Shown: positions 29,186 to 61,837 of the stretch, piece by piece
Layout: every line of letters begins with the position of its first letter
Numbering within the stretch: the stretch's first letter is position 1
NCBI RefSeq assembly: GCF_011046245.1
Contig: NZ_CP049241.1
Coordinates: 1,752,001 to 1,816,000 of the forward strand
Direction: 5' to 3'
Origin: Allorhizobium pseudoryzae
GTDB taxonomy: Bacteria; Pseudomonadota; Alphaproteobacteria; Rhizobiales; Rhizobiaceae
Length of the DNA stretch: 64,000 nt
Notes under the pieces: model-generated
The model's database searches: none
What the model saw: the letters and a program-made list of their open reading frames with translations, nothing else
Told to the model about the DNA's origin: nothing
Program-made: the position numbers and the translations under genes

Positions 29186-29210
29186 AACATGAGGGGATCG
29201 CGATCGTTCC
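29186..29210 (-). promoter_or_regulatory. EcfG-type stress promoter candidate for cydAB
   Basis: Minus strand GGAAC-N16-TGTT; matches GGAAC-N18-TT described for RpoE2/EcfG. It is 230 bp from the cydA start, so the link is less certain than for the shorter-leader cases. Confidence 0.4.
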
Positions 29211-29229
29211 AATCCTTCGCCGGAAATTC

Positions 29230-29255
29230 GGAACCTTCGTTGCCGTGGCGTGGTT
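29230..29255 (+). promoter_or_regulatory. EcfG-type stress promoter candidate
   Basis: GGAAC-N17-GGTT, about 30 bp before the start of the gene at 29284. Divergent to the candidate at 29186-29210. Confidence 0.5.
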
Positions 29256-29283
29256 CGACCTTCAGAGAGAAAGGAGGACGGCC

Positions 29284-29547
29284 ATGAGCGAAGCCGTTGA
29301 AACGACGGACCACAAGACCATCAAACGCTGGATCGAAGAGCGCGGCGGCCATCCATCACGCGTCAAGGGCGCCAAGGAAGGCGGTATCCTTCGTGTCGAT
29401 TTCGGCAAGCCGGAGGACAATCTGGAAGCCATCGAATGGGAGGATTTCTTTTCCATCTTCGACGAGAACGATCTGGCTTTCCTGTATCAGGACGAGACCA
29501 AGGACGGGAAGACCAGCCGCTTCAACAAGTTCGTTTCGAAGCATTAG
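29284..29547 (+). CDS. Small acidic hypothetical stress protein
   Basis: An 87-aa soluble protein, MSEAVETTDHKTIKRWIEER then GGHPSRVKGAKEGGILRVDFG, with a C-terminal aromatic/acidic part (WEDFFSIFDENDLAFLYQ). The ATG follows GAAAGGAGG. I recognise the layout as a conserved rhizobial hypothetical (its TIKRWIEERGGHP opening is often annotated vaguely), but no function is known to me. It is divergent to cydAB, has an EcfG-type promoter and is followed at 13 bp by another small gene. Confidence 0.75.
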   Translation: MSEAVETTDHKTIKRWIEERGGHPSRVKGAKEGGILRVDFGKPEDNLEAIEWEDFFSIFDENDLAFLYQDETKDGKTSRFNKFVSKH

Positions 29548-29560
29548 CCTGGAGGACACA

Positions 29561-29806
29561 ATGCAAGGCAACAAGACACACCAGCAGCAGCGCAACATTA
29601 TCGAAAAGCGGATCGACACCAGCAACGCGTCGCCGGATTTTGATGCGCGTGCCGATCTCGACCGCACCCCTCAGGCGCGCGAGGCCTTCCGGGAAGGTGA
29701 TGCAAGCATCAATCCGCGCGTGGCCGAGGTTTCCCTCCATGACGACGCCTCGATCGTGCGCAGGGTGAACCAGGAGAGCGAACACAACAAGGGCAGCGGC
29801 CACTGA
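29561..29806 (+). CDS. Small polar hypothetical protein
   Basis: An 81-aa, highly polar protein (MQGNKTHQQQRNIIEKRIDT start) with a central DARADLDRTPQAREAFREGD and C-terminal HNKGSGH; probably disordered. GGAGGACACA precedes the ATG. It is cotranscribed with the gene at 29284 (13-bp gap). No family recognised. Confidence 0.72.
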   Translation: MQGNKTHQQQRNIIEKRIDTSNASPDFDARADLDRTPQAREAFREGDASINPRVAEVSLHDDASIVRRVNQESEHNKGSGH

Positions 29807-29863
29807 GGGCGGGGCCATTCGACCGCGAAGCAGAAACGGCCGGCGTAGGCATCCTGCGCCGGC

Positions 29864-30619
29864 TTAGAGTTTAACGGTGACCAGCAGAGGCAGATGATCG
29901 GACGCGCGGCGCGCCGCCGGCGTCGAAACCGCCTCGGCATTGACGATCTGCGGGCCACCGCCGACAAAGACATGATCCAGCCTTAGAATTGGCCAGCGCG
30001 CGGGAAAAGTGGGGGCGGCCAGACGCCCCGTCTGTCGCCTCGCATCAGACAGCCGTTCCAGGATCATCCGGTATGGTGCCGACGAGGGGATGGAGTTGAA
30101 ATCGCCGATCAGGACCACCGGCTTGCCCTCAAGCTCCGGATGGGTCAGCCAGTCTTCTCCCGTCAGTGCCGCAGCCTGCCGCAGGCGGTCGCGCCGCAGG
30201 AGACCGAGATGCGTGTTGAACACCTGGAGCTTTTTTCCAGCCACCTCGATCATCGTCCACAGCGCGCCGCGCGGCTCGCCGATCGAAGGCAGGGCGGCGG
30301 ATTTCACAAGCCGCATCGGAAAGGCGGTGAGCAGGGCATCGCCATACAGCTCCTCCTCCAGCTTCAGGGCAGGGTGGAAGTGAAAGTCCATCTTCAGCCG
30401 ACGCGCAATTTCCTCCGCCTGGTCCACACCGCCGCTGCGCCGCCGGCCAACATCCAGCTCCTGCAGGCCGATGACGTCCGGCTCGAGCGCCGCAATCATG
30501 TCGGCCACACGGCCAACATCAAGTTTGCGGTCGGTGCCCACACAACTGTGAACGTTGTAGCTGAGAATGCGGATGGTCCGCCCGTCGGGCGAGACCGTAG
30601 GAGAGCTAAGTTCGGTCAT
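29864..30619 (-). CDS. Endonuclease/exonuclease/phosphatase-family protein (YbhP-like)
   Basis: A 251-aa metal-dependent EEP-fold hydrolase. Marks: ILSYNVHSCVGTDRKLD (metal Asn), VIGLQELD (catalytic Glu), FNTHLGLLRRDR, VLIGDFNSIPSS and the final SDHLPLLVTV (Asp-His). It is divergent from the YbhN-like gene, which is followed by a phospholipase D-type synthase; E. coli ybhP-ybhO(clsB)-ybhN has the same three families together. A lipid-linked phosphodiesterase role is therefore plausible. AAGGGG lies 11 nt before the ATG. Confidence 0.82.
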   Translation of the reverse strand: MTELSSPTVSPDGRTIRILSYNVHSCVGTDRKLDVGRVADMIAALEPDVIGLQELDVGRRRSGGVDQAEEIARRLKMDFHFHPALKLEEELYGDALLTAFPMRLVKSAALPSIGEPRGALWTMIEVAGKKLQVFNTHLGLLRRDRLRQAAALTGEDWLTHPELEGKPVVLIGDFNSIPSSAPYRMILERLSDARRQTGRLAAPTFPARWPILRLDHVFVGGGPQIVNAEAVSTPAARRASDHLPLLVTVKL

Positions 30620-30626
30620 GAGCGTG

Positions 30627-30652
30627 GGAACCCCTTATCCTCAACATTCGTT
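30627..30652 (+). promoter_or_regulatory. EcfG-type stress promoter for the YbhN-like gene
   Basis: GGAAC-N17-CGTT, an ideal match. The reverse strand of the same stretch reads GGAAC-N17-GGTT (30654 to 30629), so the -35 of one overlaps the -10 of the other; the reverse one would give an almost leaderless message for the gene at 30619 and is doubtful. Confidence 0.6.
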
Positions 30653-30714
30653 CCCTCGATGATCAGAACATGACCAGCAGCCGGTCAACCGGCTCATTAC
30701 CATCGGGAGCGCTC

Positions 30715-60596: not shown

Positions 60597-60622
60597 GGAA
60601 CGATGTGACGATGGCTCGCGTT
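60597..60622 (+). promoter_or_regulatory. EcfG-type stress promoter for the gene at 60669
   Basis: GGAAC-N17-CGTT, an ideal match 46 bp before the ATG; divergent to 60533-60558. Confidence 0.66.
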
Positions 60623-60668
60623 CTTCGCGCAGGGCGGGCCGGGCGTGAGACACATCGGGAGAAGACCC

Positions 60669-61001
60669 ATGGACGAACAGTTGAAGATCTATCGTCTGGT
60701 GCCGAGCGCACCGCTGGATGATCCGCAGTGGATGGACCGGCCGCCGCAGGGCGAAATCGTCGTGCGGGCACGCACCAGCGGTGACGCGCGCGTGGTGGCA
60801 AGCGAAGCGGAACTGGATTTCACGGAAATCGATGCCCTGCCGGCGGAGGGCAATTCCACGGAAATGGCCAGCGCCTTCCGCAGCGAAAAACTCTACACCG
60901 TCATCGAGGATGTCAGCGGTCGTTTCAGCGGAGAGGGGCCGCGGCAGGTGGTGGATGGGACGGTGCGCATCGATACCATCCTGCCGGTGCAGGTGGACTG
61001 A
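60669..61001 (+). CDS. 110-aa hypothetical protein
   Basis: MDEQLKIYRLVPSAPLDDPQ then WMDRPPQGEIVVRARTSGDA. A compact soluble protein with alternating strands (EIVVRARTS, ARVVASEAELDF, KLYTVIEDVSG, DGTVRIDTILPVQVD), probably a small beta-rich fold. EcfG promoter upstream; directly convergent with the NepR-like gene (ends adjoin). Common in rhizobial genomes as an uncharacterised protein by my recollection; no function assigned. Confidence 0.74.
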   Translation: MDEQLKIYRLVPSAPLDDPQWMDRPPQGEIVVRARTSGDARVVASEAELDFTEIDALPAEGNSTEMASAFRSEKLYTVIEDVSGRFSGEGPRQVVDGTVRIDTILPVQVD

Positions 61002-61184
61002 TCACTCTTTCGAGGGCTGATCCAGCTTCTCGTTCAGCGCCTTCTGCAATTCAAGGGCAAGCTCCATCAGCCGATCCGGCACCGGCTCCTTTTCGATGGC
61101 CGCAAGGAGATGGGCAACCTTGCCACCGACCTTGTTGCCGAGGGCGCCTTTTACGTCCGCATTCAAACTCGTCTCTTCTGCCAT
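61002..61184 (-). CDS. NepR-like small protein (putative anti-sigma factor paralogue)
   Basis: A 60-aa protein, MAEETSLNADVKGALGNKVG then GKVAHLLAAIEKEPVPDRLM and ELALELQKALNEKLDQPSKE. The core VGGKVAHLLAAIEKEPVPDR followed by an amphipathic helix matches the NepR layout, in which a first helix leads to an EPVPDRF-like turn and a Leu-rich second helix. NepR binds EcfG and is titrated by phosphorylated PhyR. Lying among about 19 EcfG-type promoters, it could tune the stress sigma factor. No GGAAC promoter found; an inverted repeat GCAGTA/TACTGC (61237-61258) lies upstream. Family call is from pattern alone. Confidence 0.55.
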   Translation of the reverse strand: MAEETSLNADVKGALGNKVGGKVAHLLAAIEKEPVPDRLMELALELQKALNEKLDQPSKE

Positions 61185-61302
61185 TTCGACCTCGTGGAAC
61201 CTGAAGCTTGCACCGCGGCATGTCGTTTCGATTGCTGCAGTACCTTCTAAACTACTGCAAAAGCAGAACGGTCCCGAAAGTCAATCAGATCTCTGGCAGC
61301 AA

Positions 61303-61335
61303 ACAGCCCGGCCGCATGTTCTGCAACCGGGCTGT
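61303..61335 (-). terminator. Hairpin after the gene at 61364-61732
   Basis: ACAGCCCGG (61303-61311) pairs with CCGGGCTGT (61327-61335), a 9-bp perfect stem; on the minus strand it is followed by TTTGC. Confidence 0.5.
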
Positions 61336-61363
61336 GTCTTCTCAGCCAGTATCGGCGCGCGGT

Positions 61364-61732
61364 TTAGCCGCGTCCATTGCGCCCCGGAATGGAGGTAATG
61401 GTGGCCGAAACCGGATCGCTTGCCGGAAAACTGTCTTCCAGGCCTTCCTGCAACTGGTCTTCCAGCGTATCCGGCGTTCCCCGGCTGCTCGCGGTCGCTG
61501 CACCGCGACCGTCCTGCGCCTCCCCGTCGATCATCTCGTCCGGCAGTTCGCCCGCTGACACGACGCGGCTCAGGAAATCCTTGGCCTTGGCCACGGCGTT
61601 GGTCCGGTTGATGTCTTCGGTCTTGGAGCGCAGGCTGACGGAGATCACGTCGCCGTTGTCCTCGATGAACTCGACGGTATAGCCGGCGTTGCCGCTTCCT
61701 TCCGCAATCACCTGCGTGCCCACAATGCTCAT
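61364..61732 (-). CDS. 122-aa hypothetical stress protein
   Basis: [20 protein letters not shown] then [20 protein letters not shown], a beta-rich N-terminal half and an acidic, Ser/Ala-rich C-terminal half ([20 protein letters not shown]). The SFPASDP segment occurs in many rhizobial small stress proteins. The frame is open far upstream but the start at 61732 is set by the promoter and by the beginning of compact sequence. Ideal EcfG promoter 39 bp upstream, divergent to ku. Function unknown. Confidence 0.74.
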
Positions 61733-61770
61733 GATGGATGCCTTTCCGGTTTGTTCTTCGTCGCCCCAAC

Positions 61771-61796
61771 AACGAGACGGATGGTCTCTTTGTTCC
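61771..61796 (-). promoter_or_regulatory. EcfG-type stress promoter for the gene at 61732
   Basis: Minus strand GGAAC-N17-CGTT, an ideal match 38 bp before the ATG. Confidence 0.68.
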
Positions 61797-61812
61797 CGCC
61801 TCTGAAGGCTAC

Positions 61813-61837
61813 GGAACCGGTCGCAGTCTGGCGGGTT
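61813..61837 (+). promoter_or_regulatory. EcfG-type stress promoter for ku
   Basis: GGAAC-N16-GGTT, 24 bp before the ku ATG; divergent to 61771-61796. Confidence 0.58.

What the first reader, a model, noticed from the sequence alone, without database searches (positions are those of the whole stretch)
29186..61837. General stress response island: 19 EcfG-type promoters in 33 kb, six as divergent pairs
Seen: GGAAC-N16/17-NNTT upstream of cydAB, 29284, ybhN-like, 33365, 33513, 43606, topoisomerase IB, 47648, coxM, 53594, 54099, glgX, 58999, 59181, 60040, 60497, 60669, 61732 and ku; eight have the ideal CGTT. Pairs: 29186/29230, 33392/33443, 47701/47754, 59027/59128, 60533/60597, 61771/61813. 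By my rough estimate about five such strings would occur by chance over both strands of 33 kb, and under one in the upstream windows actually searched. Such clustering of a regulon, if real, is noteworthy.
Basis: partly seen in the sequence, partly recalled or inferred. Interest (0 to 1): 0.7.

Follow-up and report, generated by a model that had tools for sequence, protein, structure and literature searches.

The report
Chromosomal cluster of general-stress-response genes
A rhizobial chromosome packs about two dozen likely switch sites of its main stress sigma factor into a few dozen kilobases close to the genes of that sigma factor's own control system, and many related species show the same arrangement, including one mirror-image switch that seems to drive two genes in opposite directions.

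Summary
Confirmed, and larger than reported. All 19 strings and 6 divergent pairs exist. The 33 kb hold 25 matches to GGAAC-N16/17-NNTT against 4.7 expected and 11 CGTT matches against 0.4; the window's first 29 kb hold 4 and 0, as chance predicts. Of 98 CGTT matches in the genome, 12 lie in 36 kb here and 3 beside phyR/nepR/ecfG, about 36 kb past the window end. Promoters are kept gene by gene in same-genus G002: 19 of 25 orthologues with, 1 of 48 without. The divergent ku pair is present at 23 of 23 orthologues; 17 of 40 sampled genus genomes lack this ku. Best reading: a conserved cluster of sigma-EcfG targets near the PhyR-NepR-EcfG switch, with no sign of mobility. It is not the whole regulon: 45 of 83 outside CGTT sites also precede genes. 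A missed detail: one palindromic promoter between ybhP- and ybhN-like genes reads both ways, in 8 of 8 divergent arrangements and 1 of 14 others. EcfG dependence was not tested.

The parts
29186..29210 (-). EcfG-type promoter upstream of cydAB (TGTT); divergent with 29230+
   Evidence: also upstream of cydA in G002
29230..29255 (+). EcfG-type promoter of an 87-aa ORF (GGTT)
   Evidence: the ORF has no reciprocal best hit in the G002 region
30627..30654 (.). Palindromic EcfG-type promoter GGAAC-N18-GTTCC reading both ways: ybhN-like (+) and ybhP-like (-)
29864..30619 (-). YbhP-like endonuclease/exonuclease/phosphatase (PF03372); most close relatives align from residues 5-17 on, so the true start may lie downstream
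30715..31656 (+). YbhN-like membrane protein (LPG_synthase_TM, 24.6 bits, under the Pfam cut-off of 33.4)
31630..33048 (-). PLD-family protein (cardiolipin-synthase/YbhO-like by recollection)
33168..33192 (-).
   Evidence: CGTT promoter also in G002
33392..33416 (-). EcfG-type promoter (TGTT) of a 55-aa ORF starting at 33365
33443..33467 (+). EcfG-type promoter (CGTT) of a DUF892 gene, 33513-34019
43538..43562 (+). Weak EcfG-type promoter (CATT) upstream of a 64-aa ORF (43606) and the HWE kinase gene
   Evidence: none called at the G002 orthologue; a promoter precedes the homologue of this ORF in L025-L031
43992..45680 (+). HWE histidine kinase with a weak dCache match; candidate input to PhyR (inference)
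   Evidence: PF07536 66 bits; dCache 36 bits, under its cut-off of 45
45680..45705 (+). EcfG-type promoter (CGTT) of topoisomerase IB (45714-46766)
   Evidence: CGTT promoter also in G002
47701..47726 (-). EcfG-type promoter (GGTT) of a 65-aa ORF starting at 47648
47754..47778 (+). EcfG-type promoter (AGTT) of the coxMN-type oxidase genes (47889 onwards)
   Evidence: coxM and coxN have no reciprocal best hit in the G002 region
53622..53647 (-). EcfG-type promoter (CGTT at N16); the nearest ORF, at 53594, has 25 aa, so possibly a small RNA
   Evidence: G002 has a CGTT site at 392257-392281 (-), between the same two neighbours
54044..54069 (+). EcfG-type promoter (TGTT) of a 95-aa ORF (54099)
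54622..54646 (+). Weak EcfG-type promoter (CTTT) of glgX (54677-56758)
   Evidence: none called in G002
58522..58547 (-).
   Evidence: CGTT promoter also in G002
59026..59051 (-). EcfG-type promoter (CGTT at N16) of a DUF2934 gene (58676-59011)
59128..59153 (+). EcfG-type promoter (CGTT at N16) of a 73-aa ORF (59181)
   Evidence: none called at the G002 orthologue
60091..60115 (-). EcfG-type promoter (GGTT) of the second DUF892 gene (59540-60040)
60533..60558 (-). EcfG-type promoter (GGTT) of a 72-aa ORF (60279-60497)
60597..60622 (+). EcfG-type promoter (CGTT) of a 110-aa ORF (60669)
61771..61796 (-). EcfG-type promoter (CGTT) of a 122-aa ORF (61364-61732); divergent with ku
   Evidence: both members of the pair at 23 of 23 genus orthologues, own one included
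61813..61838 (+). EcfG-type promoter (GTTT) of ku (61862-62665)
34101..43390 (.). Block inside the cluster without a convincing EcfG-type promoter: two small ORFs, asnB, dctB/dctD-like, tctC-tctB-tctA

Best explanation
This is a real, conserved chromosomal cluster of general-stress-response genes. The PhyR-NepR-EcfG partner switch lies about 36 kb beyond the window and has EcfG-type promoters of its own. When HWE kinases, one of them encoded inside the cluster, signal stress, PhyR takes NepR off sigma-EcfG. Sigma-EcfG then starts transcription at about two dozen promoters in the cluster, many of them in back-to-back pairs. Likely products are NHEJ repair (Ku), topoisomerase IB, glycogen enzymes, DUF892 proteins, envelope lipid enzymes, alternative oxidases and many small unknown proteins. 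Shown: the DNA elements, their non-random density, their conservation, and the regulator genes nearby. Inferred from other Alphaproteobacteria: that EcfG reads these sites, the partner switch and the stress induction. The cause of the clustering (co-selection of co-regulated neighbours, mainly vertical descent) is inference; no gene tree was built.
For: Density: 25 against 4.7 and 11 against 0.41 expected. Spacer: 158 (N16) and 92 (N17) NGTT matches against 9-38 at each of the other 32 spacers of 6-39, over 700 kb of this region and related loci. Genome: 12 of 98 CGTT sites in 36 kb; with 60 or 98 random sites the largest 38-kb count in 20,000 simulations was 8 or 10. None of the 15 cluster CGTT sites was classed intragenic, against 31 of 81 in the stretches fetched from elsewhere. 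Gene-by-gene conservation in G002: 19 of 25 against 1 of 48; six wrong-spacing controls share 0 or 1. ku pair at 23 of 23 orthologues; of 7 paralogues 1 has a promoter, none a pair. Thirteen named loci L019-L031: 188 matches against about 43 expected, with shared gene content. Regulators. GGAAC-N16-CGTT is the motif of R. etli EcfG1 (PMC3892343, section 19 read).
Against: No expression data for this organism. The genome total (98) is hardly above the reversed-pattern control (89). 6 of 25 G000 promoters were not called at the G002 orthologue, and about 9 kb in the middle has none. The ku of this cluster is not universal in the genus: 17 of 40 sampled genomes have only a more distant Ku or none at E<=1e-60; whether they lack the rest of the cluster was not tested. 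A second EcfG-like sigma factor at the cluster edge may read some sites. Gene calls come from a simple codon model, and ORFs under 70 aa are uncertain.
Confidence: 0.87

Rival explanations
1. The promoters are real, but read mainly by the second EcfG-like sigma factor encoded at the cluster's edge (or shared between the two), making the cluster a partly separate EcfG2-type regulon.
For: The second sigma factor is 42% identical to EcfG over 125 residues, has a CGTT promoter upstream, and its homologues are 87-91% identical in six named loci L019-L024.
Against: Its own promoter has the EcfG motif. In R. etli 1 of 19 units lowered in the ecfG2 mutant carried GGAAC-N16-CGTT, against 19 of 56 for EcfG1 (PMC3892343, section 19); whether this protein is an orthologue of R. 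etli EcfG2 was not tested.
Confidence: 0.12
2. A horizontally acquired genomic island in the mobile sense.
For: Strong local concentration of one promoter type; this ku is present in 23 of 40 sampled genus genomes, so presence is patchy; ku and topoisomerase IB homologues also lie together in Paracoccus loci L032, L035 and L038.
Against: No tRNA and no Rfam match in the window (flanks not scanned); no mobility family among the Pfam matches of the 39 called genes from 26517 to 63963; GC 62.5% against 62.9% in the window's first 29 kb; gene order kept in G002 and named relatives.
Confidence: 0.06
3. Chance or composition artefact, or a non-promoter sequence constraint.
For: The motif is short; genome-wide counts are close to the reversed control.
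Against: Shuffles, spacer controls and orthologue conservation.
Confidence: 0.01

Closest known systems
Sigma-EcfG (ECF15) regulon of Alphaproteobacteria under PhyR-NepR-EcfG (R. etli EcfG1, S. meliloti RpoE2, S. melonis EcfG)
   Same: Same promoter (GGAAC-N16-CGTT), same kind of regulator locus (nepR-ecfG divergent from phyR, HWE kinase gene next door); shared target types Ku, topoisomerase IB and GlgX (S. melonis table, passages).
   Different: Here 15 of the genome's 98 CGTT matches sit in two neighbouring clusters near the regulators. The passages and sections that I saw of PMC3616915, PMC6180224, PMC3892343, PMC6599016, PMC7083833 and PMC8103513 do not describe such a cluster of target genes; none was read whole.
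RpoS regulon of E. coli
   Same: Similar functions by recollection (ybhPON, yciE/F DUF892, glycogen genes); a resemblance, not a test. PMC3616915 (passage) says that RpoE2-like factors were proposed to be analogous to RpoS.
   Different: Different sigma factor, promoter and control (recalled).
Bacterial bidirectional promoters
   Same: One DNA site serving both strands.
   Different: Here the -35 box of one strand overlaps the -10 box of the other (GGAAC-N17/18-GTTCC). One search on palindromic bidirectional ECF promoters listed a single paper, on a Streptomyces regulator, and one on bidirectional promoters and sigma factors listed three; listings only.

Membership tests
Sigma-EcfG regulon | GGAAC -35 box and CGTT-like -10 box, 16/17-base spacer, above chance | tested here: met
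Sigma-EcfG regulon | Sites lie upstream of genes, in the right orientation | tested here: met
   13 of 15 cluster CGTT sites within 300 bp upstream of a called start, 2 intergenic without a called gene, 0 intragenic; one of the 15, 47664-, I hold to be chance
Sigma-EcfG regulon | Genome encodes phyR, nepR and ecfG | tested here: met
   NepR 56 bits, PhyR 71 bits, ECF sigma gene overlapping nepR
Sigma-EcfG regulon | Promoters conserved at orthologous genes | tested here: met
   19 of 25 against 1 of 48; 23 of 23 at ku
Sigma-EcfG regulon | Expression lost in an ecfG mutant | not testable with these tools
   needs RNA-seq in a mutant
Mobile genomic island | Mobility genes, tRNA edge, odd composition | tested here: not met
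   tRNAs searched in the window only
Mobile genomic island | Patchy presence in relatives | tested here: inconclusive
   23 of 40 sampled genus genomes hold this ku at 71% identity or more, 17 do not; only ku was surveyed
Bidirectional promoter (ybhP/ybhN) | Complete promoter elements on both strands in one overlapping site, between divergent genes, conserved | tested here: met
   8 of 8 divergent arrangements, 1 of 14 others (Fisher 2.8e-5 on this hand-entered table)
Bidirectional promoter (ybhP/ybhN) | RNA starts mapped in both directions from the site | not testable with these tools
   needs 5'-end mapping

The most novel reading that the evidence does not exclude
The lineage keeps many targets of its general stress sigma factor as a regulatory neighbourhood near the sigma factor's own locus, and within it uses symmetric sigma-EcfG sites: a single GGAAC-N17/18-GTTCC palindrome (ybhP/ybhN), or abutting GTTCCGGAAC boxes (gap 0 at 14 of 23 ku loci). 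At these, polymerase can sit in only one direction at a time, so each event picks one of two divergent genes and keeps their outputs balanced.
Probability: 0.4. Interest if true: 0.62.

Novelty: new variant of a known kind. Interest (0 to 1): 0.5.

Why it matters
It gives a compact, conserved list of likely core stress genes, including many small unknown proteins, in a little-studied rhizobial genus. It offers a natural case for asking why a sigma factor's targets cluster near its gene. The palindromic promoter, found almost only where the two genes are divergent, is a clean test of whether an ECF-type polymerase can use one site in both directions.

Tried and rejected
Palindromic promoters as a general feature: rejected. 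In the pooled related loci they are 8 sites (16 of 250 readings), not above other spacings. Over 151 family genomes GGAAC-N17/18-GTTCC shows no general excess over its reversed control (own genome 9 against 11; higher in some genomes, lower in others; not counted in full). The signal belongs to the ybhP/ybhN junction. The same junction in other families of the order: 0 of 10 loci (L189-L198, all outside the family; none with the two genes divergent, and in five no ybhN-like match in the locus).

A claim that the whole regulon is in the cluster: rejected. NepR identity for the 64-aa ORF at 43606: rejected, no Pfam match, and the genome's one NepR match lies elsewhere. Mobile island: see rivals; on re-checking I raised it from 0.04 to 0.06 and lowered the best explanation from 0.88 to 0.87, because 17 of 40 genus genomes lack this ku.

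Limits of lists: one search used 60 as a round figure for the 58 upstream sites. In one search the list for G099 stopped before its ku locus; places were listed for G002 and part of G005 only. Plasmid searches with Ku, a 5.7-kb stretch and the second sigma factor gave many partial relatives and were not followed up. Paper searches on ybhP/ybhN/ybhO (no paper) and on RpoE2 with end joining (one paper, on Sphingopyxis) led nowhere.
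Full report
WHERE IT IS. The window is C1:1752001-1816000 of a 5.376-Mb genome in 5 contigs. Its genus can be inferred: same-genus genomes G102, G100 and G090 have ku at coordinates that match the named records of Neorhizobium alkalisoli DSM 21826, Rhizobium sp. LCM 4573 and Rhizobium sp. LC145. This is inference from coordinates.

THE OBSERVATION. An exact scan finds 29 matches to GGAAC-N16/17-NNTT in the window, 25 of them in 29186-61837, and 11 CGTT matches, all in that part. 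All 19 sites and six pairs of the finding are there. Two hundred dinucleotide shuffles give means of 4.7 (sd 2.2) and 0.41; the first 29 kb has 4 and 0 against 4.0 and 0.37. Among spacers 8-29 the excess is at 16 and 17. Of the six extra matches, three are plausible promoters (30654-, 33192-, 58547-) and three are probably chance (41407+, 44721+, 47664-).

GENOME-WIDE TEST. GGAAC-N16/17-CGTT occurs 98 times (47+51); the reversed control occurs 89 times. So the bare total says little, but the distribution does: 12 of 98 lie in 1782627-1818220 and 3 more in 1848350-1854320. In 20,000 simulations the largest count in any 38 kb was 8 with 60 sites and 10 with 98. I classified all 98 with a simple codon model. 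Cluster (1781-1819k and 1848-1855k): 13 upstream of a start, 2 intergenic without a called gene, 0 intragenic (n=15; one of the 15, 47664-, I hold to be chance). Outside: 43 upstream, 31 intragenic, 7 intergenic in the 79 fetched stretches (n=81), plus 2 upstream in the flanks. A scattered regulon therefore exists too.

THE REGULATORS. nepR (1851607-1851822, -), ecfG (1851044-1851610, -), phyR (1851957-1852751, +) and an HWE kinase gene (1853032-1854054, +) lie 35-38 kb beyond the window end, with GGAAC boxes back-to-back between nepR and phyR (1851880- and 1851889+; the nepR-side -10 is ATTT, and no promoter was called at nepR in G002). At the far edge of the main cluster lie ligD, a second ku, and a second EcfG-like sigma gene (42% identical to EcfG over 125 residues, possibly starting at L014:2264) behind a CGTT promoter. 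A further HWE kinase, with a weak dCache match, is inside the window (43992-45680). A block of the window (34.1-43.4 kb: asnB, dctB/dctD-like, tct) has no convincing promoter.

RELATIVES. Same-genus G002 has the same two-part layout: 9 CGTT sites in 388.8-404.6 kb and 4 in 460-465 kb, of 113 in its genome. Of 73 reciprocal best pairs in the compared region, 19 of 25 G000 genes with a promoter have one in G002, and 1 of 48 without (Fisher 2e-11); six wrong-spacing controls share 0, 0, 0, 1, 0 and 0. G089 has 9 CGTT sites in 19.7 kb at ku and 2 near phyR, of 95, and also another group (6 in 16 kb at 2507-2524 kb) that I did not follow up. ku lies 36-63 kb from phyR on one contig in 8 of 8 genomes, G000 and seven that I picked from those with a close ku. 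In a sample of 40 genus genomes, 23 hold this ku at 71% identity or more (own included), 13 have only a more distant Ku at E<=1e-60, and 4 none. At the 23 orthologues both divergent promoters are always present although the distance between the -35 boxes varies from 0 to 150; 14 of 23 have them abutting as GTTCCGGAAC. Of 7 paralogues looked at (60% identity or less) one has a promoter and none a pair. Around ku in 24 named loci the match count exceeds the expectation from 30 first-order Markov simulations in every locus: strongly in L019-L031 (188 against about 43 in 13 loci), little in others such as L039 (5 against 3.5) and L034 (3 against 1.3). Gene content in L019-L024 repeats the window; L025-L031 and L033 keep a rearranged subset.

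THE PALINDROMIC PROMOTER. Between the ybhP-like and ybhN-like genes one site, GGAAC-N18-GTTCC, contains a full promoter on each strand. It recurs with different inner letters and both lengths in 8 of 11 family orthologues of the ybhP-like gene (L129-L139, own included, E<=1.5e-58) and in G002, in 0 of the 19 more distant homologues for which loci were given (L140-L158), and in 0 of 10 loci from other families of the order (L189-L198). Sorted by gene order: 8 of 8 divergent arrangements have it (seven loci plus G002), 1 of 14 others does (L137, collinear); Fisher 2.8e-5 on this hand-entered table. The eight come from six genera, three of them from one genus, so they are not all independent. The two lengths fit a sigma factor better than a rigid dimeric repressor (inference). 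It is not a genome-wide habit.

KNOWN BACKGROUND. R. etli EcfG1: GGAAC-N16-CGTT upstream of 19 of 56 units (PMC3892343, sections 18 and 19 read; passages). S. melonis: EcfG-dependent list with Ku, GlgX and topoisomerase IB (PMC6599016, passages). S. meliloti RpoE2: PMC3616915 passages and PMC6180224 passages. S. granuli: PMC7083833 passages. Review PMC8103513 passages. Searches for a described cluster or island of such targets showed none in the titles and abstract openings listed; the library lacks most subscription papers and most of the lists were cut at 10-20 rows, so this is weak evidence of absence.

LIMITS. No expression evidence; codon-model gene calls; ORFs under 70 aa doubtful; reversed and shuffled controls do not model selection on coding sequence; presence across the genus was surveyed for ku only. 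Names ybhP, ybhN, ybhO, yciE/F, coxMN and ECF15 are recalled; the genes rest on Pfam families.

Noticed in passing
30627-30654: Palindromic promoter reading both ways between divergent ybhP-like and ybhN-like genes; in 8 of 8 divergent arrangements and 1 of 14 others.
   Followed up: yes
L014:2264-2764 (C1:1818264-1818764): Second EcfG-like sigma factor at the cluster edge behind a CGTT promoter; 87-91% identical in six named loci.
   Followed up: partly
L014 around C1:1818849 (-): A GGAAC-N16-GGTT site points back into the second sigma gene (antisense), paired with the promoter of a PQQ-dehydrogenase gene; G002 has a separate gene there.
   Followed up: no
53594-53647: CGTT promoter whose nearest ORF has 25 aa; G002 has a CGTT site between the same two neighbours: candidate small RNA or tiny protein.
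   Followed up: no
G089:C1:2507334-2523632: Another dense group of six CGTT sites in 16 kb, away from ku and phyR.
   Followed up: no
L032, L035, L038, L040: Paracoccus ku loci carry EcfG-type matches above expectation; L032, L035 and L038 have topoisomerase IB, L035 a PhyR-like match and L040 an EcfG-like match.
   Followed up: no
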